A stretch of DNA of 64,000 nucleotides from Xylanimonas ulmi (GTDB taxonomy: Bacteria > Actinomycetota > Actinomycetes > Actinomycetales > Cellulomonadaceae). Positions 11,613 to 58,917 of this stretch are shown piece after piece. The notes beneath the pieces are model-generated. The model was not told the DNA's origin and searched no databases. It saw nothing but the letters and a program-made list of their open reading frames with translations. How positions within the stretch are numbered: the first letter of the stretch is position 1; the number at the start of each line of letters is the position of its first letter. Made by a program: the position numbers and the translations under genes. The DNA lies in assembly GCF_004216535.1 (NCBI RefSeq), contig NZ_SGWX01000001.1, forward strand, positions 186,001-250,000. Direction: 5' to 3'.

Positions 11613-11730
11613 CCCGGCGGCTGAGGTGTCGGCCCCTCTAGACCACGGGTTCCCAGAGCGGGGTCTGTACGGTCTGCGGCTCTGGCGCACTTTCGGTGGT
11701 GTGGCCTGCGGTTGTGGCCTGCGGTGACGC

Positions 11731-12791: not shown

Positions 12792-12805
12792 CCCAGTGTC
12801 CCGCG

Positions 12806-13801: not shown

Positions 13802-14067
13802 ACCCGGACCTCCAGGTGCGCCTCACCCAGGGCCTGGGTCAGCTCGGCGACCTCGGCCTCCAACTGCTGCTCCCGCGTCGAGGGCCCCGACTTCCCCGCC
13901 ACCAGGCCGGTCTTGCCGGCCTCGAGGAACTGCCGCTTCCAGTTCCCGACGGACTGCTCGGACACCTTCGCCCGCCGGGCGGCCTCGGCGACGGTGACCT
14001 CGCCGGCTAGGACCGACAACACGATCCTGGACTTCTCCTCCACCGGAACGGCTGGTGGTCTTGCCAT
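13750..14067 (-). CDS. IS3-family transposase OrfA, HTH protein
   Basis: 105 residues: a helix-turn-helix (GEVTVAEAARRAKVSEQSVGNWKRQFLEAG) followed by a leucine-rich coiled coil (QQLEAEVAELTQALGEAHLEVRVWKK), the usual OrfA plan. It starts 69 nt inside the right end of the element. Its 3' end overlaps orfB. Confidence 0.9.
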   Translation of the reverse strand: MARPPAVPVEEKSRIVLSVLAGEVTVAEAARRAKVSEQSVGNWKRQFLEAGKTGLVAGKSGPSTREQQLEAEVAELTQALGEAHLEVRVWKKSAEGRLGPSRTSR

Positions 14068-14141
14068 GAACGATCAGAATCCTCACAGGTCAGGCCCGCA
14101 AGCAACGGGCCCTGCCACAAAGTCTGACGCGCGACACCCAG

Positions 14142-14618
14142 GACCCGCGGCACGACCAGCGCCGGGAGCTCGATCCTGCGCAGGACGCGCAGCGCGGTCT
14201 CTCGCCGCAGGCGCATGCCGAGAGCGGGGGCGAGCCGGGCCGAGGCGCGCCCCGCGAGCTCGGTCACCACGGCCTCGAGGGCTTCGGTCAGCCGGGCCGT
14301 GCGCCGTTGATAACGCTCGAGCACGCCCGGGACCTGCTCACGGAACGTCCTGCGCGGGCAGTGCGGCGACTGGCAGACCAGGCGCCGCACCCGGACCCGC
14401 AGCACGACCCGCAGCCCAGCGACGGGCAGGTCAGCCGGCGCGCGCTCGTGCCAGGCATGCAACCGCGTCGACGGCTGACTACAGACCGGGCAACCCGCTG
14501 GCCCGCCACGTGTCGTCACGGCGAGGACGAGCCCGCCCTCGCCCTCCTCCACGTCCTGGACGATCAGCCCGTCCAGCCCCGCGAACACCGCCCTGACCAG
14601 CACCGACGCATCGAGCAC
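14142..14618 (-). pseudogene. ISL3 transposase, N-terminal part
   Basis: About 159 residues from the start at 14618: a zinc-ribbon-like CPVC and a C-PHC-PRRTF segment (the ISL3 zf region), then a helical DNA-binding part ending VPRVLG. At 14136 the frame enters the inserted IS3 element. Removing that element and one copy of its 5-bp duplication joins the frame exactly to GIDDFALRRG at 12790. Confidence 0.85.
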
Positions 14619-14700
14619 GGCAGATCATTACAGATCCGCCAACCGCCATCGGACACCACCGAAAGTGCGCCAGAGCCGCTGGCTTTACAGACCCCAGGCC

Positions 14701-16091: not shown

Positions 16092-16123
16092 GGAAACACG
16101 GCGTTGGCCCGGCCGGTGTGGGT

Positions 16124-17517
16124 GGGTCTGTACGGTCTGCGGTGTATCTCCTGACCAGGAGGAACACGGATGAGTACGCAGGTCGACATGGTCGCGGAGG
16201 CGATCAGCGAGGAGCAGGTGCACGTGACGACGACGCCGCAGGCGCCGCAGTTGGACAAGACGCTGATCGCTCAGCTGGTTGGTGACGCGCAGGCGTCCGG
16301 GCTGGGCATCGATGGGGAGAACGGGTTGTTGGCGCAGCTGACGAAGCTGGTCCTGGAGTCCGCGCTCGAGGGTGAGCTGACTGCTCACCTGGGCTACGAG
16401 AAGCACGAGAAGGGCGCCTCGACGGACGGCAACGCCCGTAACGGCACCCGTGCGAAGACGGTGCTGACCAAGGGCGGCCCGGTGCAGGTCGAGGTGCCCC
16501 GGGACCGGGCGGGGACGTTCGAGCCGGTCGTGGTCGCCAAGCGGCAGCGCAGGTTGGGGTCGATCGAGGACATCGTGCTGTCGTTGTCGGCTCGGGGGAT
16601 GACGCACGGGGACATCAGCGCGCACCTGGCCGACGTGTACGGCTCGGAGGTGTCGAAGACGACGATCTCGACGATCACGGACAAGGTCCTGGACGAGATG
16701 GCCGAATGGCAGTCCCGGCCCCTGGACCCGGTGTATCCGGTGGTGTTCGTTGACTGCATCCACGTCAAGGTGCGTGACGGGCAGGTCGCCAACCGGCCGA
16801 TCTACGTCGCACTGGCCGTGACCGTCGACGGGAACCGGGACATCCTGGGGCTGTGGGCCGGGGACGGTGGTGAGGGCGCGAAGTACTGGCAGCAGGTCCT
16901 GACCGAGATCAAGAACCGCGGCGTGCAGGACCTCCTCATGCTCGTGTGTGACGGCCTGAAGGGGCTGCCCGACTCCGTGAGCGCCGTGTGGCCGGACACC
17001 ATCGTGCAGACCTGCGTCGTGCATCTGATGCGGGCCAGCTTCCGGTACGCCGCCCGGCAGGACTGGGACGCGATCTCCCGGGACCTGAAGCCCGTCTACC
17101 AGGCCGCGACCGTCGAGGGGGCCGAGGAACGCTTCTTGGAGTTCTCCGAGAAGTGGGGCGCCAAGTACCCCGCGATCGTGCGGCTGTGGACGAACGCGTG
17201 GGCCGAGTTCGTCCCGTTCCTCCAGTTCGACCGGGAGATCCGCCGGATCGTGTGCACGACGAACGCGATCGAGTCGGTCAACGCCCGGATCCGTAAGGCC
17301 GTGCGTGCCCGCGGGCACTTCCCGAACGAGCAGGCCGCGCTCAAGTGCGTCTACCTCGCCGTCATGGCCCTGGACCCCACCGGCAGGGGACGAGCCCGCT
17401 GGACCCAACGCTGGAAGGGCGCGCTGAACGCGTTCGACATCACCTTCGACGGTCGGCTCACCGCCGGCCGCCGCTGACCAACAACACCCAGAGATACACC
17501 GCTGGCTTTACAGACCC
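16124..17517 (+). mobile_element. IS256-family element 2 with 8-bp target duplication
   Basis: The ends are GGGTCTGTA...GCGGTGTATCTC at 16124-16150 and its inverted copy at 17491-17517, with a 6-nt unmatched stretch inside each. The target duplication GTGTGGGT is exact at 16116-16123 and 17518-17525. The duplication and the intact gene indicate a recent insertion. The target was the loop of an inverted repeat (arms 16100-16110 and 17531-17541) downstream of the CWB2 protein gene. Confidence 0.93.
16170..17477 (+). CDS. IS256-family (Mutator-type) transposase
   Basis: 435 residues, start ATG 16170 with a strong AGGAGG site 6 nt before it. Motifs: VVFVDCIHVKVRDGQV (D), MLVCDGLKGLPDSV (D) and VCTTNAIESVNARIRKAVRARGHFPNEQ (E). 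TAHLGYEKHEKG and NGTRAKTVLTKGGPVQVEVPRDRAG occupy the N-terminal part. Nothing is missing, and together with the clean target duplication this is the IS in the window most likely to be active. Confidence 0.95.
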   Translation: MSTQVDMVAEAISEEQVHVTTTPQAPQLDKTLIAQLVGDAQASGLGIDGENGLLAQLTKLVLESALEGELTAHLGYEKHEKGASTDGNARNGTRAKTVLTKGGPVQVEVPRDRAGTFEPVVVAKRQRRLGSIEDIVLSLSARGMTHGDISAHLADVYGSEVSKTTISTITDKVLDEMAEWQSRPLDPVYPVVFVDCIHVKVRDGQVANRPIYVALAVTVDGNRDILGLWAGDGGEGAKYWQQVLTEIKNRGVQDLLMLVCDGLKGLPDSVSAVWPDTIVQTCVVHLMRASFRYAARQDWDAISRDLKPVYQAATVEGAEERFLEFSEKWGAKYPAIVRLWTNAWAEFVPFLQFDREIRRIVCTTNAIESVNARIRKAVRARGHFPNEQAALKCVYLAVMALDPTGRGRARWTQRWKGALNAFDITFDGRLTAGRR

Positions 17518-26982: not shown

Positions 26983-27008
26983 GGCGGCCTCAGACGCCGG
27001 AGGCCGCC
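26983..27008. terminator. Bidirectional hairpin between convergent genes
   Basis: GGCGGCCTC (26983-26991) and GAGGCCGCC (27000-27008) form a 9-bp stem with an 8-nt loop. It overlaps the stop codon of the minus-strand DUF2142 gene and lies 28 nt after the GtrB stop. Confidence 0.55.
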
Positions 27009-28489
27009 GGCGCGGACCGCTCCCGAACGGCGAACAGGGCGAGCAGGAGGAGCGTGAACCCCACCGTCCCGAACGCCCAGGTGGCCATCGGCGACGGCCC
27101 CCCGTGCCACCACTCGACATCCGCGTTGAGGTTGAAGCCGGAGACGTCGAGGCCGGTGACGAACCGCCGGATCTGCGTGTGCAGCGCGACGCTGTGCGCG
27201 ACCGCGAGCCCGCTGACCAGTGCGAGCGTCTGGGGCGTTGCGATCGTCGGAGCCCCGCCGTCCTGCGGTGACCACATGACGACGGCCATGAGCACGAACA
27301 GGAGCGGGAGCGTGTACCGAGCCTGGAACGCGATGCCGACGTGCGCGCTGCTCACCTGGAGGAAGATCAGCGGCAGCGCGACGTAGAGCAGCGCGACCCC
27401 GCCCAGCGCGATCCACTTGCGCGGGCGCATCGACGCCAGGCCGCTCCACGCGACCGCCGCGCTGAGAGCGATCACCGTGACCCAGGTGATGGCCGGCACG
27501 GGAGTGTCGAGCCAGTTCAGCATCGTCGGCTGAACGGCCGCGAATCCGAACAGCAGCGGCAGGAAGTCCCGGACGTTCGCGAACAGCAGGGTCCAGCCCG
27601 TCTCCGTCGCCGTTCCGCCGGAGAAGCCGCGGAGCAGGAGGGCGGACTGCCCGGAGGCGAGGAAGGCGGTCACGGTGGCCGCGAGCAGGGCCGTGAGCGC
27701 GCCGCCGGCGATCCAGGTCCTGCGCGACCATGTGAGACGCACGAACATCACCGCGACGGCGATGATCGCCACGCCGACGAACGCGGCCGCGTCTGCGCGC
27801 GCCGCCGCGGCCAGGAACGCTCCGACGAGGGCCAGTGCCGCGAGCGCGACCCTCCTCGCGCGGCTCACCGGTTGGAAGAGTCCGTAGCTCCCGAAGAACG
27901 CGACGATGACTCCGGTGATGGCCCAGCTGCTGGGGTTGACGCTGGCGACGAGGAAGATCGGGAACGGCGCCACCACTGGCAGGACTGCGTACAGGACGTG
28001 CCGGCGCCCGCCGAGGGGAAGGAGCAGGACCACCGCCGTGATCAGGCCGACCGCGAGCAGTCCGTTGACGATCCGGATCGTGACGACCGTTGCCGCGGGA
28101 TCGTCGCCCACGAGGTGATGGACGATGTCGTAGTAGGTCCCCGGGTACCCGCCGCCGTGGTCGAGGCGTGAGGTCCAGGCCGTGCCCTCGACGCCGAGTG
28201 CGCAAGCGCCCGACTCGGCGGGCTGGAACATGTTGCAGGAGGAACTCTCCACCAACAGCCTGGGCACCTCGGCCTGGGTGACACCCGTGTCGCCCACGCG
28301 GGTCTCGCACGCGCCGTCGATCGGCGTCGGGCACCAGATCGACGCCAGGTGGAAGTCTTCGTCGGGCGAGGAGCCGGGAGGCGACGCCGTCGCCCACGCG
28401 ACCACGGACAGAACCGCGCCGAGGATGGCCAGTGCGCCCAGGAGTGATCGGCCGCGGAGCGTCAGCGCGTGGAGGGGGTTCGGTGGCAC
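26990..28489 (-). CDS. DUF2142 polytopic membrane protein 1 (GT-C-like)
   Basis: 499 residues with about 11 membrane segments. After the first segment comes ASPPGSSPDEDFHLASIWCP with acidic residues at 43-45, placed like the catalytic Asp/Glu of the first outer loop of GT-C glycosyltransferases. The short signatures INPSSW-like (NPSSWAITGV), DTPVPAITW and RYTLPLL are shared with two other window proteins (43594-45147 and 50707-52206). A GTG start at 28489 is fixed by a TANNNT box 6 nt upstream. The known family is of unknown function; using a polyprenyl-phosphate sugar from the adjacent GtrB is inference. Confidence 0.8.
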   Translation of the reverse strand: MPPNPLHALTLRGRSLLGALAILGAVLSVVAWATASPPGSSPDEDFHLASIWCPTPIDGACETRVGDTGVTQAEVPRLLVESSSCNMFQPAESGACALGVEGTAWTSRLDHGGGYPGTYYDIVHHLVGDDPAATVVTIRIVNGLLAVGLITAVVLLLPLGGRRHVLYAVLPVVAPFPIFLVASVNPSSWAITGVIVAFFGSYGLFQPVSRARRVALAALALVGAFLAAAARADAAAFVGVAIIAVAVMFVRLTWSRRTWIAGGALTALLAATVTAFLASGQSALLLRGFSGGTATETGWTLLFANVRDFLPLLFGFAAVQPTMLNWLDTPVPAITWVTVIALSAAVAWSGLASMRPRKWIALGGVALLYVALPLIFLQVSSAHVGIAFQARYTLPLLFVLMAVVMWSPQDGGAPTIATPQTLALVSGLAVAHSVALHTQIRRFVTGLDVSGFNLNADVEWWHGGPSPMATWAFGTVGFTLLLLALFAVRERSAPAASGV

Positions 28490-43593: not shown

Positions 43594-45147
43594 CTACGCG
43601 GCGGGCGTCAGGGCTGGGCTGACCGCCGCGAGGGGCTCGCCCGTGAGCTCGGGCCGCTCGTCGCTCGGGTCTGCGCGCTGGACTCGGAAGAGCACGAGCG
43701 CGAGCACCGCGAACCCGAGGCTGCCCAGGAACCAGGTGGCCATCGGGCTGACCGGGGATCCCCACCACTCGACCGCCGAGTTGAGGTTGAGCCCGCCCAC
43801 GTCGAGGCCCGTGACGAACCGGCGGATCTGGATGTGGAGGATCACCGCGTGGGCGCCGACGAGGCTGGCGTAGACGAGGGCGCTCTGGCCCGTGCCCAGG
43901 CGAGGCATCCCCCCGCGACATGGCGTCCACAGCGTGGTGGCCATGATCGCGGGGACGAGGGGAGCGACGTACCGGGCCTGCACCTCCAGCCCGACCGGGG
44001 TGCCGGAGAGCTGGAGCACGAGCAGCGGCAGCGCGACGTACACGCCGACCATGCCGAGCAAGGCAACGCCCTTGGGGACGTCGACGACGCGCATCCCGCG
44101 GAACGCGAGCGCTCCGGCGACCAGGACCAGGGGGACCCAGGCGATCGGCGGCACCGGGGTGTCGAGCCAGTTGAGGCTCTCGGTCTGGGCGCCGAGCAGG
44201 AGTGACGGCAGGGCGAAGAGATTGGCGAAGAACAAGTCGCCGTCGCCGGGCCCTTGCGTGCCGTACATGCCCGTCAGCGCGCCGGTCTGGCTCGCCGAGA
44301 GAAAGCCGACGACGCCGATGGCCGTGACGAGGAGGGGCAGGATCCCTGTCCGCACCCGCGCGCGGACCGTCCGGATGTGGAGCGCAACCACTCCCGCCGC
44401 GACGACTCCGAGGTAGGCGCCGGCGTCGGCCCGCGCCGTGGCGGTCAGGACGGCCGCGAGCAGCGCGACCGCCGCCAGGCCGTAGCGTCGGCGCCGATCC
44501 GGCTGGGTCATGAACCCGTGCATGCCGGCCCACGCGACGGCGACCCCCGTGACGGCCCAGCTCGAGGGGTTGATGGAGGCGATCAAGTAGACGCCCAGCG
44601 GGACGGACACGGTCAGAAAGCCGTAGGCGAGCACGCGCCGCGACGCGGGCGGTGAGAGCACGGCGACGGCGGTGAACAGGGCGATCGCCACCAGTCCGTT
44701 CGCGATCCGCATGTTCGTCACGGACTGGGGCACGTCGGGGCCGACGAACCAGTGCATGACGTCGTAGAAGCCGCCGGGGTAGAGGCCGTCGTTGAGGCGG
44801 CTCGCCCAGACCTTGTCGTTGCCGAGCCCGTCCACGCAGGCGCCCGAGTTGTCGGGCTGGAAGGCCGTGCAGAGCGCCGCGGAGACGACCACGTGTGGTG
44901 CGGCGACCTGGGTCTCTCCCTCCTCCCCCACGCGGGTCTCGCAGGATCCGTCGATCGGCATCGGGCACCAGATCGACGTGAGGTGGAAGTCCTCGTCGGG
45001 CGACGATCCGGGGGGCGACGCCGTCGCCCAGGCGACCACGGCGAGGAGCGCGCCCACCACCAGCAGGGCCGACCATGCGGCCGTCCGCAGTCGCGATCGG
45101 CGACGCGCGTCGGTGTCTCCGGGCGTGCGGTGGCGCAGGGGGCTCAT
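43594..45147 (-). CDS. DUF2142 polytopic membrane protein 2 (GT-C-like)
   Basis: 517 residues with about 11 membrane segments. ATG 45147 is set by a TANNNT box 6 nt upstream. ATASPPGSSPDEDFHLTSIWCP follows the first segment with DED at 51-53, then a region with conserved cysteines (CETRVGEEG, ALCTAF and GACVDG), NPSSWAVTGVAVAW, DTPVPPIAW and QARYVAPL. The same order is present in the proteins at 26990-28489 and 50707-52206. Function unknown; an outside-acting polyprenyl-phosphate-dependent glycosyltransferase is inferred. Confidence 0.8.
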   Translation of the reverse strand: MSPLRHRTPGDTDARRRSRLRTAAWSALLVVGALLAVVAWATASPPGSSPDEDFHLTSIWCPMPIDGSCETRVGEEGETQVAAPHVVVSAALCTAFQPDNSGACVDGLGNDKVWASRLNDGLYPGGFYDVMHWFVGPDVPQSVTNMRIANGLVAIALFTAVAVLSPPASRRVLAYGFLTVSVPLGVYLIASINPSSWAVTGVAVAWAGMHGFMTQPDRRRRYGLAAVALLAAVLTATARADAGAYLGVVAAGVVALHIRTVRARVRTGILPLLVTAIGVVGFLSASQTGALTGMYGTQGPGDGDLFFANLFALPSLLLGAQTESLNWLDTPVPPIAWVPLVLVAGALAFRGMRVVDVPKGVALLGMVGVYVALPLLVLQLSGTPVGLEVQARYVAPLVPAIMATTLWTPCRGGMPRLGTGQSALVYASLVGAHAVILHIQIRRFVTGLDVGGLNLNSAVEWWGSPVSPMATWFLGSLGFAVLALVLFRVQRADPSDERPELTGEPLAAVSPALTPAA

Positions 45148-45159
45148 CCCCGCAGGATA
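45148..45159 (-). promoter_or_regulatory. Leaderless promoter of DUF2142 gene 2
   Basis: TATCCT (45159-45154) ends 6 nt before ATG 45147. It touches the terminator stem at 45160. Confidence 0.5.
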
Positions 45160-45211
45160 CCGGCGCGGATCCACCTCACGGCGCGAACGACGGAGGATGG
45201 ATCCGCGCCGG
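45160..45211 (-). terminator. Strong hairpin after the exported-protein operon
   Basis: CCGGCGCGGATCCA (45160-45173) and its exact complement (45198-45211) make a 14-bp perfect stem with a 24-nt loop, 12 nt after the stop at 45224. There is no T-run. The next promoter begins at its far edge. Confidence 0.65.
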
Positions 45212-49674: not shown

Positions 49675-50716
49675 CACCAGGGCGGCGGCGCCGCGACGGG
49701 TTCTGCACCTGCTGGGGACCAACCAGTTCTCCGGCGCCGAGAACGTGATCGTGACGATGATGGAGCAGTTCCGCGGCTCAGAGGTCGAGATGGTCTACTG
49801 CTCGCCCGACGGCCCCATCCGCGAGGTGCTCACCTCGCGCGGGCTCGCGTTCCTTCCGTTGGCGGGCCTGACGCCGCACCAGGTGCGGTCCGTGCTGCGC
49901 GCACACCGCTTCGACGTCGTGCACGCGCACGACTTCAAAGCGAGCATGGTCGCCGTGCTCGCGGGGTTCGCGGGCGAGATCATCGCCCACATCCATTCGA
50001 ACCCGCGGTTCGTCAAGAGCTGGAACCCGCTCTCCCTCGCGTTCGCCAGCGTGGCCAGGAGGTTCCACCGGGTGGTGTTCGTCTCCGCGGAGGCGACGCG
50101 CGGAACGGTGTTCGCCGGGCTGGTCCGCGACAGGGCGCGGGTCGTGGCGAACGTGGTCGACAGCGAGCGGGTCCGACGGCTCGCCGCCGAACGCGACGTC
50201 GAGCGGCGTGATGTCGTCTTCCTCGGTCGCCTGACCGAGGTCAAGCGGCCGCAGACGGTCATCAGGGCCGTGGCCGGGGCGCGCCGGGCAGTCCCGGAGC
50301 TGACCGCGCGACTCGTCGGTGACGGTGATCTCAGGGCCGCGTGCGAGCGTGAGATCCGCGCGCTCGGCCTGGACGGTGGCGTGAGGCTCGAAGGGTTCCA
50401 GTCCAACCCGTACCCGTTCGTCCGCGCCGCGAGGATCGCGCTCATGCCCTCGACCTACGAGGGCCTCGGCCTCGCGGCGATCGAGGCGCTCGCCCTCGGG
50501 GTTCCCGTGCTCAACAGCGGTGCGGGCGGTCTCGGCGATATGTTCGCGGCCCATCCGGAGTTCATCTGTCGCACCGTCGAGGAGTACGCCGCGCGCCTCG
50601 TCGAGCTCCAGGACCCCGACAGATACTGCGAGCTCCAGGCGGCGTGCGCCGAGATCGTCGCGCCGTACTGCGACCTCGCGCGCTATACCGCCCAGATACG
50701 CGAGCTCTACGCGTGA
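49667..50716 (+). CDS. Glycosyltransferase family 4
   Basis: 349 residues from GTG 49667 with AAGGGA 6 nt upstream. N-terminal half: RVLHLLGTNQFSGAENVIVTMM, the GG/GAE acceptor loop, and VVHAHDFKASMVAVLAG. Donor half: VVFLGRLTEVKRPQTVIRA, LVGDGDLRAACEREI and LMPSTYEGLGLAAIEALALGVPVL (E-x7-E). It follows the Wzx gene. The 3' end overlaps the convergent DUF2142 gene by 10 nt. Confidence 0.9.
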   Translation: MRDTRAAAPRRVLHLLGTNQFSGAENVIVTMMEQFRGSEVEMVYCSPDGPIREVLTSRGLAFLPLAGLTPHQVRSVLRAHRFDVVHAHDFKASMVAVLAGFAGEIIAHIHSNPRFVKSWNPLSLAFASVARRFHRVVFVSAEATRGTVFAGLVRDRARVVANVVDSERVRRLAAERDVERRDVVFLGRLTEVKRPQTVIRAVAGARRAVPELTARLVGDGDLRAACEREIRALGLDGGVRLEGFQSNPYPFVRAARIALMPSTYEGLGLAAIEALALGVPVLNSGAGGLGDMFAAHPEFICRTVEEYAARLVELQDPDRYCELQAACAEIVAPYCDLARYTAQIRELYA

Positions 50717-52206
50717 GCGGCCACGGTGGCGGGCTCGGACCTCTCGGGGCGTGCCACCAGGAAGAGGGCGACCGCGAGCGCGGCGAAGCCGAAGCTGCCC
50801 AGAATCCAAGTGGCCACGGGTGAGACGGGCGACCCCCACCACTCGACGGCGTCGTTGAGATTGACGCCACCCACGTCGAGCCCGGTGACGTAGCGCCGGA
50901 TCTGGGTGTGCAGCACGGCGCTGTGGCCGACGACCATCGCCGCGTAGGCGAGCACGGTCTGGGGCCGGCTCAGACGCGGGATGCCGCGTCGCACCGGGTC
51001 CCAGAGGGCGGCGGTCATGATCGCCGGGAGCAGGGGGGTGAGGTAGCGCGCTTGCACCTCCGTGCCGACATGCGCGCCCGACAGCTGCAGGAGCAGCAGG
51101 GGGAGCGCGGCGTAGACGCCGACGAGACCCAGCAGCGCGACGCGTTTGGGGACGTCGGTGACCCGCAGCCCGAGGAACGCGAGCGCCGCGATGACCAGCA
51201 CGATCGGGACCCAGGTGATCGCGGGCACCGGGGTGTCCACCCAGTTGAGGGGGTCCATCTGCGAGCCGAGCAGCAGCTGCGGCAGTCCCTTGATGTTGGA
51301 GATGAGCAGCGCGCGGTCGCCGAGCTGCGCGTAGCCGCCCATGCCGCTGGTCACCGCCCCGGCTTGGCTCGCGGACGCGAATCCCGCGGCGCCGATGACG
51401 GCGACGGCCGTCGGGAGCGCCGCCAGGCGCAGGCGGCCGCGCACCGCCGTGAAGTGCAGCGCCACGGCGCCGACGGCGATCACGCCGAGGAAGGCGCCGG
51501 CGTCGGCGCGAGCGGTGGCCGCGACGACGGCGGCGCCCACCGCGAGCGCCGCGAGGCCCACGCGGCGCCGACGCTCCGGCTGCGTGAGGTACCCGTGCAG
51601 CGCGGCCCACGCGACCGCGACCCCGGTGATCGCCCAGCTGGAGGGGTTGACGGAGGCGATCAGGTAGACGGCCATCGGGACCGCCACGGTGAGATGGCCG
51701 TAGACCAGCGCGCGGCGCCCCTCGGGCGGGGAGAGCATGGTGACGGCCGCGAAGAGCACGATGGCGAGCAGGCCGTTGACCACGCGCATGATGGTGACGG
51801 ATCTGGCGACGTCGTCGCCGACGAACACGTGCATGACGTCGTAGAAGCCGCCCGGGTACTGGCCGTCATCGAGGCGGTTCGACCACGTCGGGTCCGTCGT
51901 CAGCGTCTTGACACAGGCGCCCGAGTTCTCGGGGTGGAACGCCGTGCAGACCGCCGAGGAGATCACCATCTGCGGCGCCTGGACGGCGGTGTAGCCGTCC
52001 GGGCCGATCTTGGTCTCGCACGCGCGCCCCAGAGGTGTCGGACACCAGATCGATGTGAGGTGAAAGTCTTCATCGGGTGAACTTCCCGGCGGGGAGGCGG
52101 TCGCCCATGCGACGACCACGAGGAGGGCGCCGAGGACGAGCGCGGCAGCGCGCAGAGGCGTGGACGCGTGGTTTCGGGCGCGCGTCAGTCGCCTCAGGGC
52201 ACTCAT
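50707..52206 (-). CDS. DUF2142 polytopic membrane protein 3 (GT-C-like)
   Basis: 499 residues from ATG 52206 (TANNNT box 6 nt upstream; a longer frame to 52308 crosses the divergent promoters). ATASPPGSSPDEDFHLTSIWCP with DED at 45-47, CETKIGPDG, AVCTAFHPENSGACV, NPSSWAITGVAVAW and DTPVPAITW appear in the same order as in its two paralogs. About 11 membrane segments. It is closest in sequence to the protein at 43594-45147. Role inferred as for the others. Confidence 0.8.
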   Translation of the reverse strand: MSALRRLTRARNHASTPLRAAALVLGALLVVVAWATASPPGSSPDEDFHLTSIWCPTPLGRACETKIGPDGYTAVQAPQMVISSAVCTAFHPENSGACVKTLTTDPTWSNRLDDGQYPGGFYDVMHVFVGDDVARSVTIMRVVNGLLAIVLFAAVTMLSPPEGRRALVYGHLTVAVPMAVYLIASVNPSSWAITGVAVAWAALHGYLTQPERRRRVGLAALAVGAAVVAATARADAGAFLGVIAVGAVALHFTAVRGRLRLAALPTAVAVIGAAGFASASQAGAVTSGMGGYAQLGDRALLISNIKGLPQLLLGSQMDPLNWVDTPVPAITWVPIVLVIAALAFLGLRVTDVPKRVALLGLVGVYAALPLLLLQLSGAHVGTEVQARYLTPLLPAIMTAALWDPVRRGIPRLSRPQTVLAYAAMVVGHSAVLHTQIRRYVTGLDVGGVNLNDAVEWWGSPVSPVATWILGSFGFAALAVALFLVARPERSEPATVAAHA

Positions 52207-52218
52207 GCGCACATCGTA
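52207..52218 (-). promoter_or_regulatory. Leaderless promoter of DUF2142 gene 3
   Basis: TACGAT (52218-52213, minus strand) ends 6 nt before ATG 52206. Confidence 0.5.
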
Positions 52219-52288
52219 GTGGCGGGCGCGACGCCGCCCCGGCGGGGCGATCATCAACGGCAAGTGGGTGGTGGCGCCGTCGGCCACT

Positions 52289-52325
52289 GGTGAGTGTTCA
52301 CCAGCCATTCAGGTAGCGTTCACCC
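52289..52325 (+). promoter_or_regulatory. Leaderless lic promoter with operator-like palindrome
   Basis: TAGCGT (52314-52319) ends 6 nt before GTG 52326. Upstream lies the palindrome GGTGA-GTGT-TCACC (52289-52302), and GTTCACC is repeated at 52318-52324, over the -10 and +1 region. The spacing suits an operator; the gene product itself carries a winged-helix domain. Confidence 0.4.
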
Positions 52326-54197
52326 GTGAATCTCGACAGACGTCCCCTCGCAGGCCCTGACGCGGGTGTCGACCCCGCGGTCCTGCTGCTGCGGGCCGTC
52401 GGCGAGCGCCGGACGAGGACGGCGTCGCAGCGAAAGCTCGCCGTCCTGCTGGGGTGGGACCGTTCGCAGGTGCGCGCGCGGGTTGCCGACGCCGTTGGGG
52501 CGGGGTTGCTCGTCCAAGTCGACGACTATGTGCAGTTGTCGCCTGCTGGATTCTCCTTCTTGGAGCCGTACCGGGTTCGCAACGCGATCATCCTTGCGGC
52601 GGGCACCGGGTCGCGGCTGCTTCCCTTGACGTTTGAGAGGCACAAGGGCCTGACTCCCGTCCGGGGGGAGCCGATGATCGAGCGGCAGATCCGGCAACTG
52701 CACGCGCGCGGGGTCGAGAACGTCGTCGTCGTCACGGGGTACCTGGCCGACTCGCTCGAATACCTCTCCGGGCGCCCGGGCGTCATCACGGTCCACAACC
52801 CGGAGTTTCAGGACAAGAACAACCTCGCGAGCCTCTTCCGGGCGGCCGATCAGTTGGGCGGCACGTACCTGCTCGTCGCCGACAACTGGATGGACGAGAA
52901 CATCTTCCGGCCGTGGGAGACGCACAGTTGGATGTGGTGCGAGCACACCGACGACCCGACGCCGGAGTGGATCGTCGACACCGCGTCGGACGGTCGGATC
53001 ACCGACATCCACATCGGCGGCGCCGGTGGGTGGTTCCTTGCTGGCCCCGCGTACCTCACGCCAGAGCTTGCCCAGGACTTCGCGCCGCTCGTCGTCGACT
53101 ACTACCACCGGGACGGGTCGGACGACTTCTACTGGGAGGACGTGCTGCGCCGTGAGCTGGGCAGTCTGCCGCCCATCTACGCGGAGCACGCGTCGCGTCG
53201 CGTCGTGCATGAGTTCGAGACCGTCGAGGAGTTGCGCCAGTTCGACCGGTCCTACCTCTTCGACATCGACGATCCGTGCCTGACGACCATCTCCACCATC
53301 TTCGGAGTGCCGCAGCACGAGATCACCGGCTTCAAGCCGATCAAGACCGGCATGACGAACACCAGCTTCGTCTTCGCGGTCGATGGCGTCGACTACGTCT
53401 ACCGCCGGCCCGGCGCCGGGACTGACGAGCTCATCAGCCGTCAGGACGAGAAGCGCAGCTACGAGGCGGTCGCCGAACTCGGGATCTCCGACGAGATCGT
53501 CCATTTCGACGCCGCGAGTGGGGTCAAGGTCTCCCGGTTCTACGAGGGCTCGGCGATCGTCGACCCGTTCAACGACGACCAGGTCGCGCGCTCCATGCGC
53601 CTGCTGCGAGAGTTCCACGACGCGCAGGTCACCACGCCGCACCGCTTCGACATCCGCGAGCGCCTCGCCGCGTATTTCGACCTCCTGGAGCAGGACGACC
53701 TCGACAAGGCTCGCGAGCTCAAGCCGTACATGCGCCAGGCCGCTCGGCTCGACGGGGTACGGGTCGGCCTCGGTGTGCCTGAGGTGCTGTGCCACATCGA
53801 CTACGTCTTCGCCAACATCCTGACGCTGCCAAGCGGCGAGATGCGCGTCATCGACTGGGAGTACAGCGGTGCGGCCGACCCCCTGATCGACGTCGCGATG
53901 TTCTCCATCTATGCCCTGTATGACCGTGCGCACATCGACCGTGCGCTCGAGCACTACCTCGGCCGGTCCGCCACGGTCGAAGAGGCATTGCGCGTCTACC
54001 TGCACGTCGCGCTCGCGGGCCTGCTGTGGAGCCTGTGGGCCTACTTCAAAGCGGCCCGCGGCGAGACTTTCGGGGAGTATCCCGAGCAGATGCTGCAGTA
54101 CTTCACGGCCTACTACCGGATCATCACGAGTGAGGGCACTTTCGATGACTACATTGCTCGCCACCACGCTGCGAGCCCAGCAGATCCGCCGGTATAG
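52326..54197 (+). CDS. licCA: Winged helix-LicC-LicA fusion: phosphocholine cytidylyltransferase/choline kinase
   Basis: 623 residues in three parts. Residues about 15-80: winged-helix domain (TASQRKLAVLLGWDRSQVRARVADAVGAGLL). Residues about 86-310: nucleotidyltransferase with NAIILAAGTGSRLLPLTFERHKGLTPVRGEPMIERQI, as in LicC, then the VADNWMDENIF metal region. Residues about 330-610: choline/aminoglycoside kinase fold with GMTNTSFVF, the HIDYVFAN motif near 489-496 and IDWEYSGAADPLIDVAMF near 508. It would phosphorylate choline and activate it to CDP-choline. Genes for LicB and LicD follow. GTG 52326 is supported by the promoter box. Single-chain fusions of LicC and LicA are known in other bacteria; I recognise the combination, not a particular ortholog. 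Confidence 0.9.
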   Translation: MNLDRRPLAGPDAGVDPAVLLLRAVGERRTRTASQRKLAVLLGWDRSQVRARVADAVGAGLLVQVDDYVQLSPAGFSFLEPYRVRNAIILAAGTGSRLLPLTFERHKGLTPVRGEPMIERQIRQLHARGVENVVVVTGYLADSLEYLSGRPGVITVHNPEFQDKNNLASLFRAADQLGGTYLLVADNWMDENIFRPWETHSWMWCEHTDDPTPEWIVDTASDGRITDIHIGGAGGWFLAGPAYLTPELAQDFAPLVVDYYHRDGSDDFYWEDVLRRELGSLPPIYAEHASRRVVHEFETVEELRQFDRSYLFDIDDPCLTTISTIFGVPQHEITGFKPIKTGMTNTSFVFAVDGVDYVYRRPGAGTDELISRQDEKRSYEAVAELGISDEIVHFDAASGVKVSRFYEGSAIVDPFNDDQVARSMRLLREFHDAQVTTPHRFDIRERLAAYFDLLEQDDLDKARELKPYMRQAARLDGVRVGLGVPEVLCHIDYVFANILTLPSGEMRVIDWEYSGAADPLIDVAMFSIYALYDRAHIDRALEHYLGRSATVEEALRVYLHVALAGLLWSLWAYFKAARGETFGEYPEQMLQYFTAYYRIITSEGTFDDYIARHHAASPADPPV

Positions 54198-55227
54198 AAG
54201 CCGCGGAATCACGGTCGCCGTCGTCTCGGGCGTCTTCTACGGGCTCTACTCCGCCTTCATCTCGCTCGCGATGGCGACCGGTGGGTGGAGTGACTGGGCG
54301 GCGGGCGCTGCGGTCAGCGCATTCGCGGCCGTCTACCTGCTCGGCATCCTGGCCGCCGGCCTCAACGACCTGCTGAGCGGTGTGTGGGCGCTGGTCATCG
54401 GCGGCGCGCGCGGTAAGTTCCGCGACACGCTGCGAGTCGCGCGGACGAGGCCCGGCCGTGTGCTGATGGCCTGCGCGATCATCGGCGGCCCGATCGGGAC
54501 CGTCGCGTACATCCTCGCGCTCCAACTCGGCGGTGCGGCGATCATCCCGATCACGGCGCTGTGTCCCGCGTTCGGCGCGATCCTGTCCCGCATCCTGTTC
54601 AAGCAGCCGCTGCGGCCGATCATGATCGTCGGCATCGCGGTCTGCTTGGGTGCGACGTGTCTGATCGCGTACTCGGCGGGCTCCGCTCCGGGCAGCGACG
54701 TCATCCTGGGCCTTGTGCTCGCCTTCGTCGCGGCCCTCGCCTGGGCAGTCGAGGGCGCGGTCGCGGGTATGGGCACGGCCGTCGTCGACTATGAGATCGC
54801 CATCACGATCCGTCAGTGGACGAGCGGCCTGATCACGCTCTTCATCGTCTTGCCAGCCGTCGCGCTGATCGGCGGAGAGCTCGGCACAGCGACCGAGATG
54901 ATCGGGCTGACGCTCTCCAGCCCGATGACGCTGCTCGTCGTCGCCGTCTCGGGGCTCTTCGCGCTCTACGCCTTCGGTCTGTGGTATCGAGGCAATGGAA
55001 TGTGCGGCACGGCGCTTGGAATGGCGTGCAATGGCACGTACTCCTTCTGGGGCCCGCTGTTCTGCTGGCTGCTGCTCGGTGTCTCGTTCGGCATGGCGGG
55101 GTGGGGCATCGCGCCCATCGCCTGGGTTGGCGCCGTCCTGATGAGCGTCGGCATCCTGCTTGTGGCCACCAACCCGCTTGAGTGGCTGCGCGCCGCTCGT
55201 GCCCGAGTCCCCGGAGGCGTCGCATGA
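54145..55227 (+). CDS. licB: LicB-like choline permease (DMT superfamily)
   Basis: 360 residues, ten membrane segments (EamA/DMT). The start ATG 54145, with GAGGG 8 nt before it, lies 53 nt inside the licCA gene. It begins with a basic stretch (TTLRAQQIRRYRSRGIT) and then VAVVSGVFYGLYSAFISLAMATG, the LicB N-terminus; later GGPIGTVAYILALQLGGAA and CNGTYSFWGPLFCWLLLGV. LicB imports choline. The place between LicCA and LicD makes this specific. Confidence 0.85.
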   Translation: MTTLLATTLRAQQIRRYRSRGITVAVVSGVFYGLYSAFISLAMATGGWSDWAAGAAVSAFAAVYLLGILAAGLNDLLSGVWALVIGGARGKFRDTLRVARTRPGRVLMACAIIGGPIGTVAYILALQLGGAAIIPITALCPAFGAILSRILFKQPLRPIMIVGIAVCLGATCLIAYSAGSAPGSDVILGLVLAFVAALAWAVEGAVAGMGTAVVDYEIAITIRQWTSGLITLFIVLPAVALIGGELGTATEMIGLTLSSPMTLLVVAVSGLFALYAFGLWYRGNGMCGTALGMACNGTYSFWGPLFCWLLLGVSFGMAGWGIAPIAWVGAVLMSVGILLVATNPLEWLRAARARVPGGVA

Positions 55228-55502
55228 GGCTCCCACTCAATGCCGCCGTGCTTCAGCAGTTCGCCCTACGCCCCGAGGCGAGCGCCGCCGAGATCGTCGA
55301 GGCTCTCGCGCCCGTCTACGGCCGAGACCGGTCGCTTCGCGTCGCCTACGTCGAGCAGGCGCTGCTCACCGCGATGATGAACGGCCTTCTCGAGGAGTCT
55401 CGAGTGGCCGAGGACGGCGGGGGCGTCTGCGCGTGGTACCGAGCCACATCGACCGGGCTCGACACCATCCGCACGTTCATCGGAGTGCCGACCCATGCCT
55501 GA
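55224..55502 (+). CDS. Small winged-helix-like protein between licB and licD
   Basis: 92 residues from ATG 55224 (ATGA overlap with licB). No family recognised with certainty. The order of helices (LNAAVLQQFALRPEASAAEIVEAL, then VAYVEQALLTAMMNGLLEES and a short two-stranded end with ICAWYRATSTGLDTI-like VCAWYRATSTGLDTI) looks like a winged helix. It overlaps licD by 8 nt, so it is part of the operon. It could be a regulator or a small partner of LicD. Confidence 0.55.
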   Translation: MRLPLNAAVLQQFALRPEASAAEIVEALAPVYGRDRSLRVAYVEQALLTAMMNGLLEESRVAEDGGGVCAWYRATSTGLDTIRTFIGVPTHA

Positions 55503-56337
55503 CCGGCGCCTGGTCGGCGAGGACGAGCTTCGCGCGATTCAGGTCGACATCCTGGAGACGATCGACCGCATCTGCCGCGAGCACGGCATCGAGTACACGA
55601 TCGCGTTCGGCACGCTGCTCGGCGCGATCCGGCACGGCGGATACATCCCGTGGGACGACGACATCGACATCGAGTTGACGCGCGACGGGTACGAGCGCCT
55701 CATCGCGCTGCTGGCGACCGAACTGCCCGAACACCTCTCGCTGCTGCACCGCAGCGCGCGCCCGACATATCTGCCGTTCGCCAAGGTGTACGACAACCGC
55801 ACCGAGTTCACCAGCAGACTCGACATGATGAACCGTGGCACCGGCGTCTTCGTCGACATCTTCCCCGTCGACGCCGTCCCCGACGACGCTGACGAGCGCC
55901 AGCGGTTTCACCAGAGCATCATCAAGGCGTCAACCCACCTCGCGGCGTCGAACGATCACGGCGTCGACTACTCGAGCGCCTCCCGGATGGCCTACCGGCT
56001 CGCCAAACTGGTGCTGTGGCTGCCCGCGCACCTGCGCCACCGGGGCCAGTGGCGACGTCTGGCGGCCGACGCCGACCTGCTGATGCAACGCTTCAACACC
56101 GAGCAGACGACGGAGTGCGGGTTCCTCGGCATGTTGACCGTCCCTGTCGTGGTTCCCCGCAGCCTTTACGCGCAGTATGAGGACGTGCTTTTCGAGGGCC
56201 GCACCCTGCGCAAGCTTGTCGATCACGACACGTACCTGCGCCGCCAGTACGGCGACTATATGGAGCTTCCGCCGCAGGGCCAGCGGGTCAACCACTCCTA
56301 CTACCGATGGTTCTGGAAACCTGGATATCGTGAGTGA
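55495..56337 (+). CDS. licD: LicD-family phosphocholine transferase
   Basis: 280 residues from ATG 55495. Core motif GTLLGAIRHGGYIPWDDDIDI at 39-59, the metal/nucleotide site of LicD/fukutin-type transferases, followed by LIALLATELPEHLSLL, FAKVYDNRTEF and GVFVDIFPVDAVPDD. It would transfer phosphocholine from CDP-choline to a sugar of the glycan. Length is normal. The stop is overlapped by 8 nt by the second Wzx gene. Confidence 0.92.
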   Translation: MPDRRLVGEDELRAIQVDILETIDRICREHGIEYTIAFGTLLGAIRHGGYIPWDDDIDIELTRDGYERLIALLATELPEHLSLLHRSARPTYLPFAKVYDNRTEFTSRLDMMNRGTGVFVDIFPVDAVPDDADERQRFHQSIIKASTHLAASNDHGVDYSSASRMAYRLAKLVLWLPAHLRHRGQWRRLAADADLLMQRFNTEQTTECGFLGMLTVPVVVPRSLYAQYEDVLFEGRTLRKLVDHDTYLRRQYGDYMELPPQGQRVNHSYYRWFWKPGYRE

Positions 56338-57802
56338 GCAGCCCGCGCAGCCCAGCCTCGGCGCGAACGCGCGCGTCATGCTGGTCTCGCAGGTCGCCCG
56401 CTACATCATCCAGTTCGGCGCCGTCGCGGTGCTCTCGCGCATCCTGACCCCGGCGGACTTCGGCGTCTACGCACTGGTCAGCGCCGTCGTCGTCATCGGC
56501 AGCGTCTTCAGCGATCTCGGCTTGACGCTCTCCGCGATCCGCGCGCCCGAACTCAGCCACCGCCAGTGGTCGGGCCTGTTCTGGGTCAACACGGCGCTCG
56601 GTGGAGTGCTCATGGTCGCCGTCATGGCGCTGGCGTCACCCATCGCCGCGCTCATGCACAACCCCAGCCTGACCACGTACCTCGTCGCCGTCGCGACCGT
56701 GTTCCTCTTGGGCGGCGCCTCGGCCCAGTACCGCGTCGCCTTGATTCGCGCGGGCCGGTATCAGGCGCTCGGCCTCGCCGAGGTCGTCGCCCCAGTGCTC
56801 GGCGTCGTGGTGACGCTTGTGGTGGCCATCTTCATCCGCGGCCCCTGGCCGCTGGTCATCCAGCAGATCGCCTGGGCGGCCTTCCTGCTCGCGCTCTCGG
56901 CGCTCGCCGCACGACGGGTGCCGCAGCGGCCCAGACGCGGCTCGGGAGTCCGCTCGCTTGTGACGACCGGCGGCGCGCTCGGCCTGCCGCTCCTCATCGA
57001 GTCGCTGTCGAACGCGCTCGCGCCGCTCGCGCTCGGGCGCACCCAACCCGCCGCAGCCGTGGGCGCGTTCTCGCAGGCGAGCAACATCGGCAATATCGTC
57101 CACCTCGCCCTCGGTGACTCGCTGACGCGCGTCGTCGTGCCGGCGATGTCGAAGGCCGAGGGCGACGAGGCGTTCGTCAGGGCGCTGCACACGGCGCGCG
57201 CGGCCTACGTCTTCAGCGTCGGAGTCCTGGTGATGGCGGTCGGTGGGCTCGCCGTCCCCGTCGTGACGATCCTCCTCGGCGGGAACTGGCTCGAACTCAC
57301 GCCGCGGCTCTTGTCCATCTGGGCGGTCGGCAGCTTCTTCCAAGGAGTCGCCTTTGTCCTCTACTGGCCCTTGGTCGGCCGAGGGCTCGCGAGACTGCAG
57401 TTGCGGATCGACACGCCGGTCCGGGTGCTGTTCATCCTCGCCGTGCTCGTCGGTGCTCAGGTCGGCGTCGAGTTCGTCGCGTGGATGTTCCTGGCCACCG
57501 CGGCGCTGCGCGCGATCGCGTACCTCGCCTTCGTGCCTCGCGCGCTCGGGATCGGCGACTTGTCCTATGTGCGTGCGGCGATGCCGAGCCTGATGGCGCC
57601 GCCGCTCGTGTTCGCCGCCACGAGGGCGACCACACGCCTGCTGGCGGACGCGCCAGCGGTGGTGCAGGGCCTCGCGGGCGCCGGGGCGATGGCTGTCGTC
57701 GTGCTCATGTGCTCGGTCGTCTCGCCGACGGTTCGGGCGGACCTGCGCTCGACCCGTAACCTTGTCGCCGACGTCGTCGGACTGGGAGCGGGCAGGGCAT
57801 GA
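56330..57802 (+). CDS. Polysaccharide flippase 2 (Wzx/TuaB-like)
   Basis: 490 residues from GTG 56330, 8 nt inside licD. About 13 membrane segments. It begins LGANARVMLVSQVARYIIQFGAVAVLSRILTPADFGVYALVSAVV, the Wzx/TuaB pattern (R-x-L-x-P-x-D-F-G). It is not closely similar to the flippase at 48397-49674 and probably exports the phosphocholine-modified unit. It overlaps the next GT by 4 nt. Confidence 0.9.
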   Translation: MSEQPAQPSLGANARVMLVSQVARYIIQFGAVAVLSRILTPADFGVYALVSAVVVIGSVFSDLGLTLSAIRAPELSHRQWSGLFWVNTALGGVLMVAVMALASPIAALMHNPSLTTYLVAVATVFLLGGASAQYRVALIRAGRYQALGLAEVVAPVLGVVVTLVVAIFIRGPWPLVIQQIAWAAFLLALSALAARRVPQRPRRGSGVRSLVTTGGALGLPLLIESLSNALAPLALGRTQPAAAVGAFSQASNIGNIVHLALGDSLTRVVVPAMSKAEGDEAFVRALHTARAAYVFSVGVLVMAVGGLAVPVVTILLGGNWLELTPRLLSIWAVGSFFQGVAFVLYWPLVGRGLARLQLRIDTPVRVLFILAVLVGAQVGVEFVAWMFLATAALRAIAYLAFVPRALGIGDLSYVRAAMPSLMAPPLVFAATRATTRLLADAPAVVQGLAGAGAMAVVVLMCSVVSPTVRADLRSTRNLVADVVGLGAGRA

Positions 57803-58917
57803 GGATCGCGTTCATGGTGAGCAGCTACCCGCCCGCCATCGGAGGGCTTGAGCGTCACATCGCCGACCTTGCCGAAGAGCTCGCGAGCCTCGGCCACACG
57901 GTCGGGGTCTTCACGCTCGCGCCGCGCTCGCGGCCGATGCGGCGTGAGAACGGTGTTGAGGTCTGCCGTTACGCCGAGATCGTGCGGGTGGGCGACGTGC
58001 TCGGTTTGCCCACCGCGCCGGCACTGCGTCGGCTGCGCGAGGAGGTCAAGGCATGGCGTCCTGACGCGATCTCGGTGCATACGCGGTTCTTCCCGCCCAC
58101 GTGGTTCGGCGTCCTGCTGGCACGACGCCTCGGGGTCCCCTCCGTTCTGACAGAGCATGGAAGCGGTCACGTCGTCTCCGAGTCCACGCTCGTGCACGTG
58201 GCCAGTCGGGTGGTTGACGGGACGCTCGGGCGGTGGGCGCTGAGAAGGGCGTCGCTCGTGCTCGGGATCTCACGAGGGGCCACTGCGTTCGTGGACCGGC
58301 TCGCCGGGCGGCGGGCGGTCCTCTTCCAGAACGCAGTGCGGCTGAGCGCGGGCGCGTCGGGAGGGCCGCACCCCGAGCGCATCGTCTTCCTCGGGCGCAT
58401 GGTCGGCGGCAAGGGCTGGGATACCTTCCTTGAGGTCGCGGGTGAGTTGCGCCGTCGAGGTGTCGCCTTCGACGCGGTCATGCTGGGTGACGGGCCTGAG
58501 TTGGAGCAGGCTCGCGCCGAGGTCGCCCGGCTCGCCCTCGCCGATGTCGTCGATGTGCGGGGAGGCGTCTCGCACGCCGAGGTCTATGAGGCGTTGCGGT
58601 CAGCGGTGCTCGTCAACCCGACCCTGCTGGCCGAGGGCTTTCAGACCACCGTCATGGAGGCCGTCGCGGCCGGGGGGCGCGTGGTCACCTACGCCGGGTC
58701 GCAGAGCGGCGAGGCGCTTGTCGAGGACGGCGCTCCCGTGACGATCGTGCCCCGTGGCGACAAGGCCGCGCTGTGCGAGGCGGTGTTGGCCGAGCTGGCA
58801 CAGCCGAGCGCGCCGTTCGCCGCCGAGCGCTTCGCACAGTGGACCTGGCCGGAGCGCGCCCGAGAGTATGAGGCGCTGCTTGCGGGCCTGACCGCGGGGC
58901 AGCCCGGCCGCGACTGA
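57799..58917 (+). CDS. Glycosyltransferase family 4
   Basis: 372 residues from ATG 57799 (ATGA overlap). N-terminus MRIAFMVSSYPPAIGGLERHIADLAEELASLGH, the GG loop of GT4; HGSGHVVSESTLVHVASRVV; donor half with IVFLGRMVGGKGWDTFLEVA, MLGDGPELEQA and TLLAEGFQTTVMEAVAAGGRVVTY (E-x7-E). Last gene of the lic operon; one base separates its stop from the convergent DUF2304 stop. Confidence 0.9.
   Translation: MRIAFMVSSYPPAIGGLERHIADLAEELASLGHTVGVFTLAPRSRPMRRENGVEVCRYAEIVRVGDVLGLPTAPALRRLREEVKAWRPDAISVHTRFFPPTWFGVLLARRLGVPSVLTEHGSGHVVSESTLVHVASRVVDGTLGRWALRRASLVLGISRGATAFVDRLAGRRAVLFQNAVRLSAGASGGPHPERIVFLGRMVGGKGWDTFLEVAGELRRRGVAFDAVMLGDGPELEQARAEVARLALADVVDVRGGVSHAEVYEALRSAVLVNPTLLAEGFQTTVMEAVAAGGRVVTYAGSQSGEALVEDGAPVTIVPRGDKAALCEAVLAELAQPSAPFAAERFAQWTWPERAREYEALLAGLTAGQPGRD

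What the first reader, a model, noticed from the sequence alone, without database searches (positions are those of the whole stretch)
52326..58917. Complete lic1-type phosphocholine decoration locus inside an actinobacterial glycan cluster
Choline kinase and cytidylyltransferase in one protein, a LicB-type permease and a LicD transferase lie in one overlapping operon with their own Wzx flippase and a GT4. All key motifs are present (GTGSRLLPLTFERHKG, HIDYVFAN, WDDDIDI). Phosphocholine on surface glycans is best known from Haemophilus, Streptococcus and Neisseria; in a high-GC actinobacterium it would change how the cell surface meets hosts, phage and choline-binding proteins. Gene content is read from sequence; the activity is inferred.
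Basis: partly seen in the sequence, partly recalled or inferred. Interest (0 to 1): 0.8.

Follow-up and report, generated by a model that had tools for sequence, protein, structure and literature searches.

The report
Phosphocholine decoration operon in Xylanimonas
A bacterium of the genus Xylanimonas carries an intact six-gene set that should attach phosphocholine to a surface sugar chain; the pathway is a known kind, but its core enzyme was found in none of the 220 other genomes of the family that were searched.

Summary
The fusion's best solved relatives are pneumococcal LicC (5e-35) and LicA (1e-29); LicA's four aromatic choline-cage residues are kept. The permease model matches LicB best. 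Relatives of the fusion lie near choline-binding-repeat proteins in 42 of 82 loci, 38 of them one sibling clade, none among the six nearest. So: a lic1-type pathway, very probably phosphocholine.

It is a known kind: 478 relatives in one scan, many actinobacterial; a paper reports Lic-1 in Actinomyces. Notable: the fusion is in 1 of 221 family genomes; the operon fills a slot where a congener carries other genes; and it looks like a mosaic. Its LicD groups with LicDs of two Xylanimonas congeners (56% and 51% identical), which lie near a TagD-like cytidylyltransferase and lack LicCA. That LicD here uses CDP-choline is therefore inferred. No choline-binding-repeat protein was found in the genome (one of two models had a working control).

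The parts
52326..52577 (+). N-terminal winged-helix-like domain (residues 1-84) of the LicCA fusion
   Evidence: MarR_2 only E 0.012 in the window protein; HTH_24 over its cut-off in L031, L077, L091, not in L014; N-terminal stretch of 55 or more residues in 79 of 83 fusions; of the 4 others L020, L051 and L055 begin at a contig end, L054 does not
52578..53270 (+). LicC-type CTP:phosphocholine cytidylyltransferase domain
   Evidence: phmmer to pneumococcal LicC 1jyk E 5.1e-35; NTP_transf_3 E 2.5e-14
53271..54197 (+). LicA-type choline kinase domain
   Evidence: phmmer to pneumococcal LicA 4r77 E 1.2e-29; Choline_kinase 39.9 bits, cut-off 29; choline cage residues kept
54145..55227 (+). LicB-type choline permease of a divergent branch (start ATG 54145; GTG 54130 also possible)
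   Evidence: EamA 31.2 bits, cut-off 28.2; profile of 17 rows to LicB 7b0k E 1.8e-43, profile of its own 7-row branch no hit; AlphaFold model best PDB matches 7paf and 7b0k, both LicB
55224..55502 (+). 92-residue protein with predicted winged-helix fold of PadR type
   Evidence: homologues directly behind LicB in L014, L015, L016, L017, L020; AF2 mean pLDDT 89.2 from 6 sequences; Foldseek best E 1.4e-4, many PadR-family regulators, TM to 0.71, also MukBEF chains
55495..56337 (+). LicD-family phosphotransferase
   Evidence: Pfam LicD E 5.4e-45; WDDDIDI; only PF04991 match in the genome; clade with two congener LicDs, support 100/99
56330..57802 (+). MOP-superfamily (Wzx-type) flippase
   Evidence: Polysacc_synt_3 E 6.9e-45; GTG start overlapping licD; match at E<=1e-60 in 1 of 220 family genomes, its own
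57799..58917 (+). GT4 glycosyltransferase
   Evidence: Glyco_transf_4 E 1e-23; 42% and 44% identical to GT4s near the LicCA fusion in L003 and in Actinomyces urogenitalis L077; match at E<=1e-60 in 1 of 220 family genomes, its own

Best explanation
A lic1-type operon, probably assembled by horizontal transfer. LicB imports choline; the LicA domain phosphorylates it with ATP; the LicC domain activates it with CTP to CDP-choline; LicD moves phosphocholine onto a lipid-linked oligosaccharide to which the GT4 contributes a sugar; the flippase carries the decorated unit outward into a cell-wall or capsular glycan made by the surrounding cluster. The winged-helix domain on LicCA and the small PadR-like protein may adjust expression to choline or CDP-choline. 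Shown here: gene content, intact frames, family membership, conserved choline-cage residues, LicB-like fold model, genus, sporadic presence. Inferred: every enzyme activity, the LicD donor, the acceptor, the direction of transport, regulation, and the transfer history.
For: Fusion: best PDB relatives are pneumococcal LicC 1jyk and LicA 4r77. LicA pocket as described in PMC4364537 (passages): T29, D176, V178, Y197, W251, W254, Y268 correspond to T344, D492, V494, Y513, W568, W571, Y585 (mapping by eye; family conservation). Permease: 17-row profile to LicB 1.8e-43; model best matches 7paf and 7b0k, TM by target 0.81 and 0.82. Context: choline-binding-repeat proteins within six genes of the fusion in 42 of 82 loci; 49 of 146 genes at offset 1 and 27 of 132 at offset 2, against 6 of 214 at offsets 5-6 and 2 of 324 farther out; one such protein checked, PF19127 E 5.6e-51. 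A GT4 of this type accompanies the fusion in L003 and L077. One LicD in the genome.
Against: LicD groups with congener LicDs near a TagD-like enzyme, in genomes without LicCA. None of the six nearest fusions has a choline-binding-repeat neighbour or a LicD match in the flank held, some of these flanks being short; L016 and L020 have a PF04464 glycerophosphotransferase instead. LicA Glu213 is Tyr529 here; LicC Asp192, discussed as making room for P-Cho against AEP (PMC6697681, passages), is Glu271 as in PntC, though Glu in 83 of 83 fusions. The permease's own branch does not reach LicB by profile. No choline-binding-repeat protein found in the genome (no control rang).
Confidence: 0.72

Rival explanations
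1. LicCA and LicB make CDP-choline, but this LicD keeps the donor of its Xylanimonas lineage (a CDP-polyol such as CDP-glycerol from a TagD-like enzyme) and decorates the glycan with another phospho-group.
For: Window LicD is 56% and 51% identical to LicDs of G010 and G004; a TagD-GFO/IDH/MocA fusion is adjacent in G010 and about 1.9 kb away in G004; its first domain matches glycerol-3-phosphate cytidylyltransferase 1coz best, 3.4e-32; both genomes lack LicCA; clade support 100/99.
Against: licD overlaps its neighbours within the lic operon; no match to the TagD-like fusion in the window plus 140 kb around it (126000-329999 of the genome); one LicD in the genome. The other 95% of the genome was not searched for a TagD-like enzyme.
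Confidence: 0.15
2. The head group is not phosphocholine but phosphoethanolamine or 2-aminoethylphosphonate; the nucleotidyltransferase works like PntC.
For: PntC and LicC are close kin (PMC6697681, passages); the residue matching LicC Asp192 is Glu, as in T. denticola PntC.
Against: A kinase with the LicA choline cage is fused to it, which a phosphonate route does not need; the second position (LicC Asp105, PntC Glu104) is Val184; no PEP mutase among 25 window proteins scanned with Pfam; choline-binding-repeat neighbours in related loci.
Confidence: 0.07
3. CDP-choline feeds phosphatidylcholine or a phosphocholine glycolipid, as in Treponema denticola or Mycoplasma fermentans, not a polysaccharide.
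For: T. denticola makes phosphatidylcholine from CDP-choline (PMC7368946, passages); LicD also hits the NCBIfam model of the cholinephosphotransferase Mf1 with 71 bits, far below its cut-off of 225.
Against: Flippase and GT4 overlap licD in one gene string, inside a polysaccharide cluster (RgpF, RmlC, several GTs).
Confidence: 0.06

Closest known systems
Pneumococcal lic1/lic2 loci (licABC, tarIJ; licD1, licD2, tacF)
   Same: Choline import, kinase, cytidylyltransferase, LicD and a MOP flippase next to licD; LicA cage residues and LicB fold shared.
   Different: LicC and LicA are fused, with a winged-helix-like domain; one LicD; no TarI/TarJ in the operon; flippase hits the MOP models PRK10459 and TuaB (TacF not compared); no choline-binding-repeat protein found in the genome (one working control).
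LicCA-LicB-small protein cassette of L014, L015, L016, L017, L020 (termite-gut MAGs by isolate codes that I recall; the titles do not say so)
   Same: Nearest LicCA (46-49%), LicB (43-55%) and small protein (34-44%) in the same order; LicCA clade of 7 rows with L019, SH-aLRT 100.
   Different: No match to the window's LicD, Wzx or GT4 in the flanks held; L016 and L020 have a PF04464 transferase downstream, L017 an MttB.
Actinomyces-type lic locus (L077, A. urogenitalis; L003 and L004 unnamed)
   Same: Winged-helix-LicC-LicA fusion, LicB (L004, L077), LicD, and the same type of GT4 (L077 44%, L003 42%).
   Different: LicCA 32-34% identical and in the other main clade; LicD of L077 and L003 30% and 24% over the alignment.
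Xylanimonas LicD with TagD-GFO/IDH/MocA fusion (G010 = X. cellulosilytica, G004)
   Same: LicD 56% and 51% identical, at the purEK end of a surface-glycan region.
   Different: No match to the window's LicCA, LicB, Wzx or GT4 in the 18-19 kb read; LicCA absent from both genomes at E<=1e-25; TagD-like enzyme instead.

Membership tests
LicC (CTP:phosphocholine cytidylyltransferase) | Sequence kinship to solved LicC, with its acidic active-site residues | tested here: met
   1jyk E 5.1e-35; LicC D107 and E216 correspond to D186 and E296, kept in 83 of 83 fusions; D107's role is recalled, E216 as metal ligand is in PMC6697681
LicC (CTP:phosphocholine cytidylyltransferase) | Smaller residues (D105, D192) that may make room for choline, Glu in T. 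denticola PntC | tested here: inconclusive
   Val184 (no Glu) but Glu271 (PntC-like); Glu271 in 83 of 83 fusions (residues from PMC6697681)
LicA (choline kinase) | Kinase core plus choline site T29, D176, V178, Y197, E213, W251, W254, Y268 | tested here: met
   All but E213 (Tyr529) kept in the window protein
LicB (choline importer) | Sequence and fold of LicB within the DMT superfamily | tested here: met
   17-row profile to 7b0k 1.8e-43; model best matches LicB; against: 7-row profile of its own branch found nothing
LicD (phosphocholine transferase) | PF04991 domain with DDD motif | tested here: met
   E 5.4e-45, WDDDIDI
LicD (phosphocholine transferase) | Uses CDP-choline | not testable with these tools
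   Inferred from the operon; congener LicDs have a TagD-like neighbour
lic1 pathway | All four functions LicA, B, C, D in one locus | tested here: met
   by homology, not activity
lic1 pathway | Phosphocholine on a surface glycan | not testable with these tools
   Needs 31P NMR or antibody
PntC phosphonate pathway | PEP mutase in the cluster | tested here: inconclusive
   None among 25 window proteins scanned with Pfam; the genome was not searched
TacF-type flippase | Sequence and residues of the phosphocholine-checking flippase | not tested
   Only general MOP models were hit

The most novel reading that the evidence does not exclude
Within one genus a single LicD lineage has changed head group by cassette exchange: paired with a TagD-like cytidylyltransferase in X. 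cellulosilytica and G004, and with an imported choline module (winged-helix-LicCA, LicB, PadR-like protein) in the window species. If so, the group put on the glycan is set by donor supply rather than by the transferase, and the CDP-choline maker may also be its own DNA-binding regulator.
Probability: 0.3. Interest if true: 0.6.

Novelty: new variant of a known kind. Interest (0 to 1): 0.4.

Why it matters
It would put phosphocholine on the surface of an actinobacterium of a family in which no other searched genome has the core enzyme, away from the pathogens in which phosphocholine is mostly studied, and so far without choline-binding-repeat proteins. Closely related LicDs with two different donor makers in one genus allow a clean test of what fixes LicD specificity. 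A first lic locus in actinobacteria it is not.

Tried and rejected
First actinobacterial occurrence: rejected. Generic EamA exporter instead of LicB: less likely. Operator search: one palindrome upstream of the fusion (window 52287-52304) was matched by 8 of 60 shuffles, and TTCACNNGTGAA (52319-52330) was found upstream of the window gene and of none of the other fusions with enough upstream sequence; no support for autoregulation. A strict repeat pattern for choline-binding proteins found 20 of 82 loci; an iterated HMM seeded from one neighbour protein found 42 of 82; only one of these proteins was checked with Pfam. Naming the species: only the genus was fixed, by a 3001-base 100% match of plasmid pXCEL01 to congener G010. 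PHROGs and PADLOC searches were not run. Papers on this family: phosphocholine, polysaccharide, Cellulomonas: one paper, listing only, on insecticidal proteins; Xylanimonas or protaetiae: listing, 12 of 72 seen; nothing is claimed about print beyond these. Rows left out: alignment A2 holds 16 of the 23 loci with a LicB match, A4 10 of the 14 with a LicD match (left out L004, cut by the locus end, L066, L068, L073; their local identities are 54% over a short stretch, 26%, 34% and 27%); three ORFs over 900 residues (L065, L067, L068) were cut to their last 620 for the tree.
Full report
Observation. The window is C1:186001-250000 of a one-contig genome of 3,965,098 bases. Between minus-strand genes on both sides lie six plus-strand genes, each overlapping the next: LicC-LicA fusion 52326-54197 (623 aa), permease 54145-55227, a 92-residue protein 55224-55502, LicD 55495-56337, flippase 56330-57802 and GT4 57799-58917. 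Around them are DUF2142 membrane proteins, DUF2304, GT2 and GT4 enzymes, RgpF and RmlC.

Families. Pfam puts NTP_transf_3, Choline_kinase and APH on the fusion, EamA on the permease, LicD at 5.4e-45, Polysacc_synt_3 and GT4 models on the rest. In NCBIfam no row shown for the fusion, the permease or LicD reaches its curated cut-off. By sequence the fusion's best solved relatives are pneumococcal LicC 1jyk (5.1e-35) and LicA 4r77 (1.2e-29). Of the choline site described for LicA (PMC4364537, passages) the four aromatic cage residues, Val178, Thr29 and Asp176 are kept; Glu213 is Tyr529. Across 83 fusions, window included, Thr344, Asp492, Asn497, Asp510, Glu512 and Trp568 never vary and Trp571 is kept in 82. 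In the LicC half Asp186 and Glu296 never vary; of two positions discussed as setting LicC apart from the phosphonate enzyme PntC (PMC6697681, passages) one is Val184 and one is Glu271, the latter PntC-like but the same in 83 of 83 fusions. I count that as inconclusive.

Permease. A profile of 17 rows (16 of the 23 loci with a LicB match, plus the window) finds LicB 7b0k at 1.8e-43; the only other row has E 1.5. The profile of the window's own branch alone (7 rows) finds no PDB chain, so this is a divergent LicB branch tied to LicB through intermediates. The AlphaFold model (mean pLDDT 86.3) has LicB in nanodiscs and choline-bound LicB as its two best Foldseek matches.

The missed gene and domain. 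The 92-residue protein has homologues directly behind LicB in five loci (L014, L015, L016, L017, L020; 34-44%). It is predicted as a winged helix (pLDDT 89.2); its Foldseek matches are weak (best E 1.4e-4) and include many PadR-family regulators, and MukBEF chains (that LmrR belongs to PadR is recalled). The fusion carries an N-terminal stretch of 55 or more residues in 79 of 83 cases, over the HTH_24 cut-off in three of four relatives scanned (L031, L077, L091; L014 only below cut-offs) and weak in the window protein. Regulation by these is a guess; the operator search gave nothing.

Distribution. The nearest (46-49%) are MAGs whose isolate codes I recall as termite-gut samples. In the phylum sample 26 of 396 genomes match at E<=1e-25, 18 of them over both halves (the window genome among them) and 8 over the kinase half only. 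In the window's family the fusion is found in 1 of 221 genomes, its own, and matches to the flippase and the GT4 at E<=1e-60 likewise in 1 of 220 each. Of 22 order members outside the family two (G038, G054) have full-length relatives, 32-33% identical. In the tree of 83 fusions (quick method; the window row has a long branch and odd composition) the window falls with L014-L017, L019 and L020 (SH-aLRT 100), apart from Actinomyces and Coriobacteriia genera such as Collinsella.

Context of relatives. Among 82 loci 42 have a choline-binding-repeat protein within six genes: 49 of 146 genes at offset 1, 27 of 132 at offset 2, 7 of 125 at 3, 6 of 115 at 4, 6 of 214 at 5-6, and 2 of 324 beyond. A stricter pattern gave 20 of 82. 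One such neighbour was checked with Pfam: PF19127 5.6e-51. A protein cluster of which one member was checked as a BCCT betaine/choline transporter lies within six genes of the fusion in seven loci. This supports choline as the substrate of the family. Against it for the window itself: 38 of the 42 form one mostly Lachnospiraceae sibling clade (38 of its 38 rows; support 80), the other four lie in the other main clade, and none of the six nearest fusions is among the 42.

The site. In congener G008 the GT2b-DUF2304 pair and the DUF2142 gene keep order and orientation; between them, where the window has the lic operon, lie about 4.5 kb with a GT4 (Pfam) and what I read from sequence as GT2 genes and a flippase-like membrane protein (the latter without a Pfam match). 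In G001 other genes follow DUF2304. So the slot looks exchangeable. GC3 of the lic genes is like that of their surroundings, so the gain need not be recent.

LicD. It is the only LicD match in the genome. Of 220 family genomes 18 match PF04991, full-length only in the window genome, G010 and G004. The congener LicDs are 56% and 51% identical to it; ten LicDs near other fusions are 24-33% and the top-listed plasmid one 34%. The clade of three has support 100/99. A fusion of a TagD-like cytidylyltransferase and a GFO/IDH/MocA oxidoreductase is adjacent in G010 and about 1.9 kb away in G004; both genomes lack LicCA at E<=1e-25. No match to this fusion occurs in the window genome between 126000 and 329999; the remaining 95% was not searched for it. 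The operon therefore looks like a mosaic: LicCA-LicB-small protein of the L014-L020 type, a GT4 like that of Actinomyces lic loci, and a Xylanimonas LicD.

Reading. The most likely function is choline uptake, activation to CDP-choline, transfer of phosphocholine to a lipid-linked glycan and export. The flippase may act like pneumococcal TacF, which monitors phosphocholine content (PMC13385700, passages); that was not tested. Choline-binding-repeat proteins were not found in the genome: PF19127 with a control that rang, PF01473 with none that rang, so only the first answer speaks for absence.

Known or new. Lic-1 genes in Actinomyces gerencseriae and A. viscosus are reported (PMC10434233, section 5), and antibody-based reports of ChoP in Actinomyces, Micrococcus and Corynebacterium jeikeium are tabulated there (passages). 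The finding is a variant of a known pathway in a new lineage, with an open and testable question about LicD.

Noticed in passing
L014:7605-9905, L015:11249-13471 and five further loci (L036, L060, L061, L075, L082): A YidC-like membrane insertase (60KD_IMP) fused to a weak CDP-glycerol glycerophosphotransferase match (L014 scanned with Pfam; the others only by clustering). An unusual fusion near LicCA genes.
   Followed up: no
L127:7699-9111, L128 about 5498-6856, L016:16093-17400: TagD-like cytidylyltransferase fused to a GFO/IDH/MocA oxidoreductase, near LicD in two Xylanimonas genomes and downstream of LicCA in L016.
   Followed up: partly
L016:13190-14800: A second LicCA-like protein (536 aa) without the N-terminal domain behind the LicCA-LicB-small protein set.
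   Followed up: no
L017:3716-5059: A trimethylamine methyltransferase (MttB) gene downstream of LicCA-LicB-small protein, a further link to methylated amines.
   Followed up: no
window 11700-17500: Transposase genes inside the glycan region (ISL3-, IS3- and two IS256-type by their plasmid matches); 187 bases at 15906-16092 are 99.5% identical to plasmid pXCEL01.
   Followed up: partly
window 27002-28444, 43660-45165, 50710-52308: Three DUF2142-type membrane protein paralogues in the cluster; the first two are 50% and 65% identical to the third.
   Followed up: no
window 52320-54212 (-): A 630-codon open frame antisense to the LicCA fusion; most likely a by-product of high GC.
   Followed up: no
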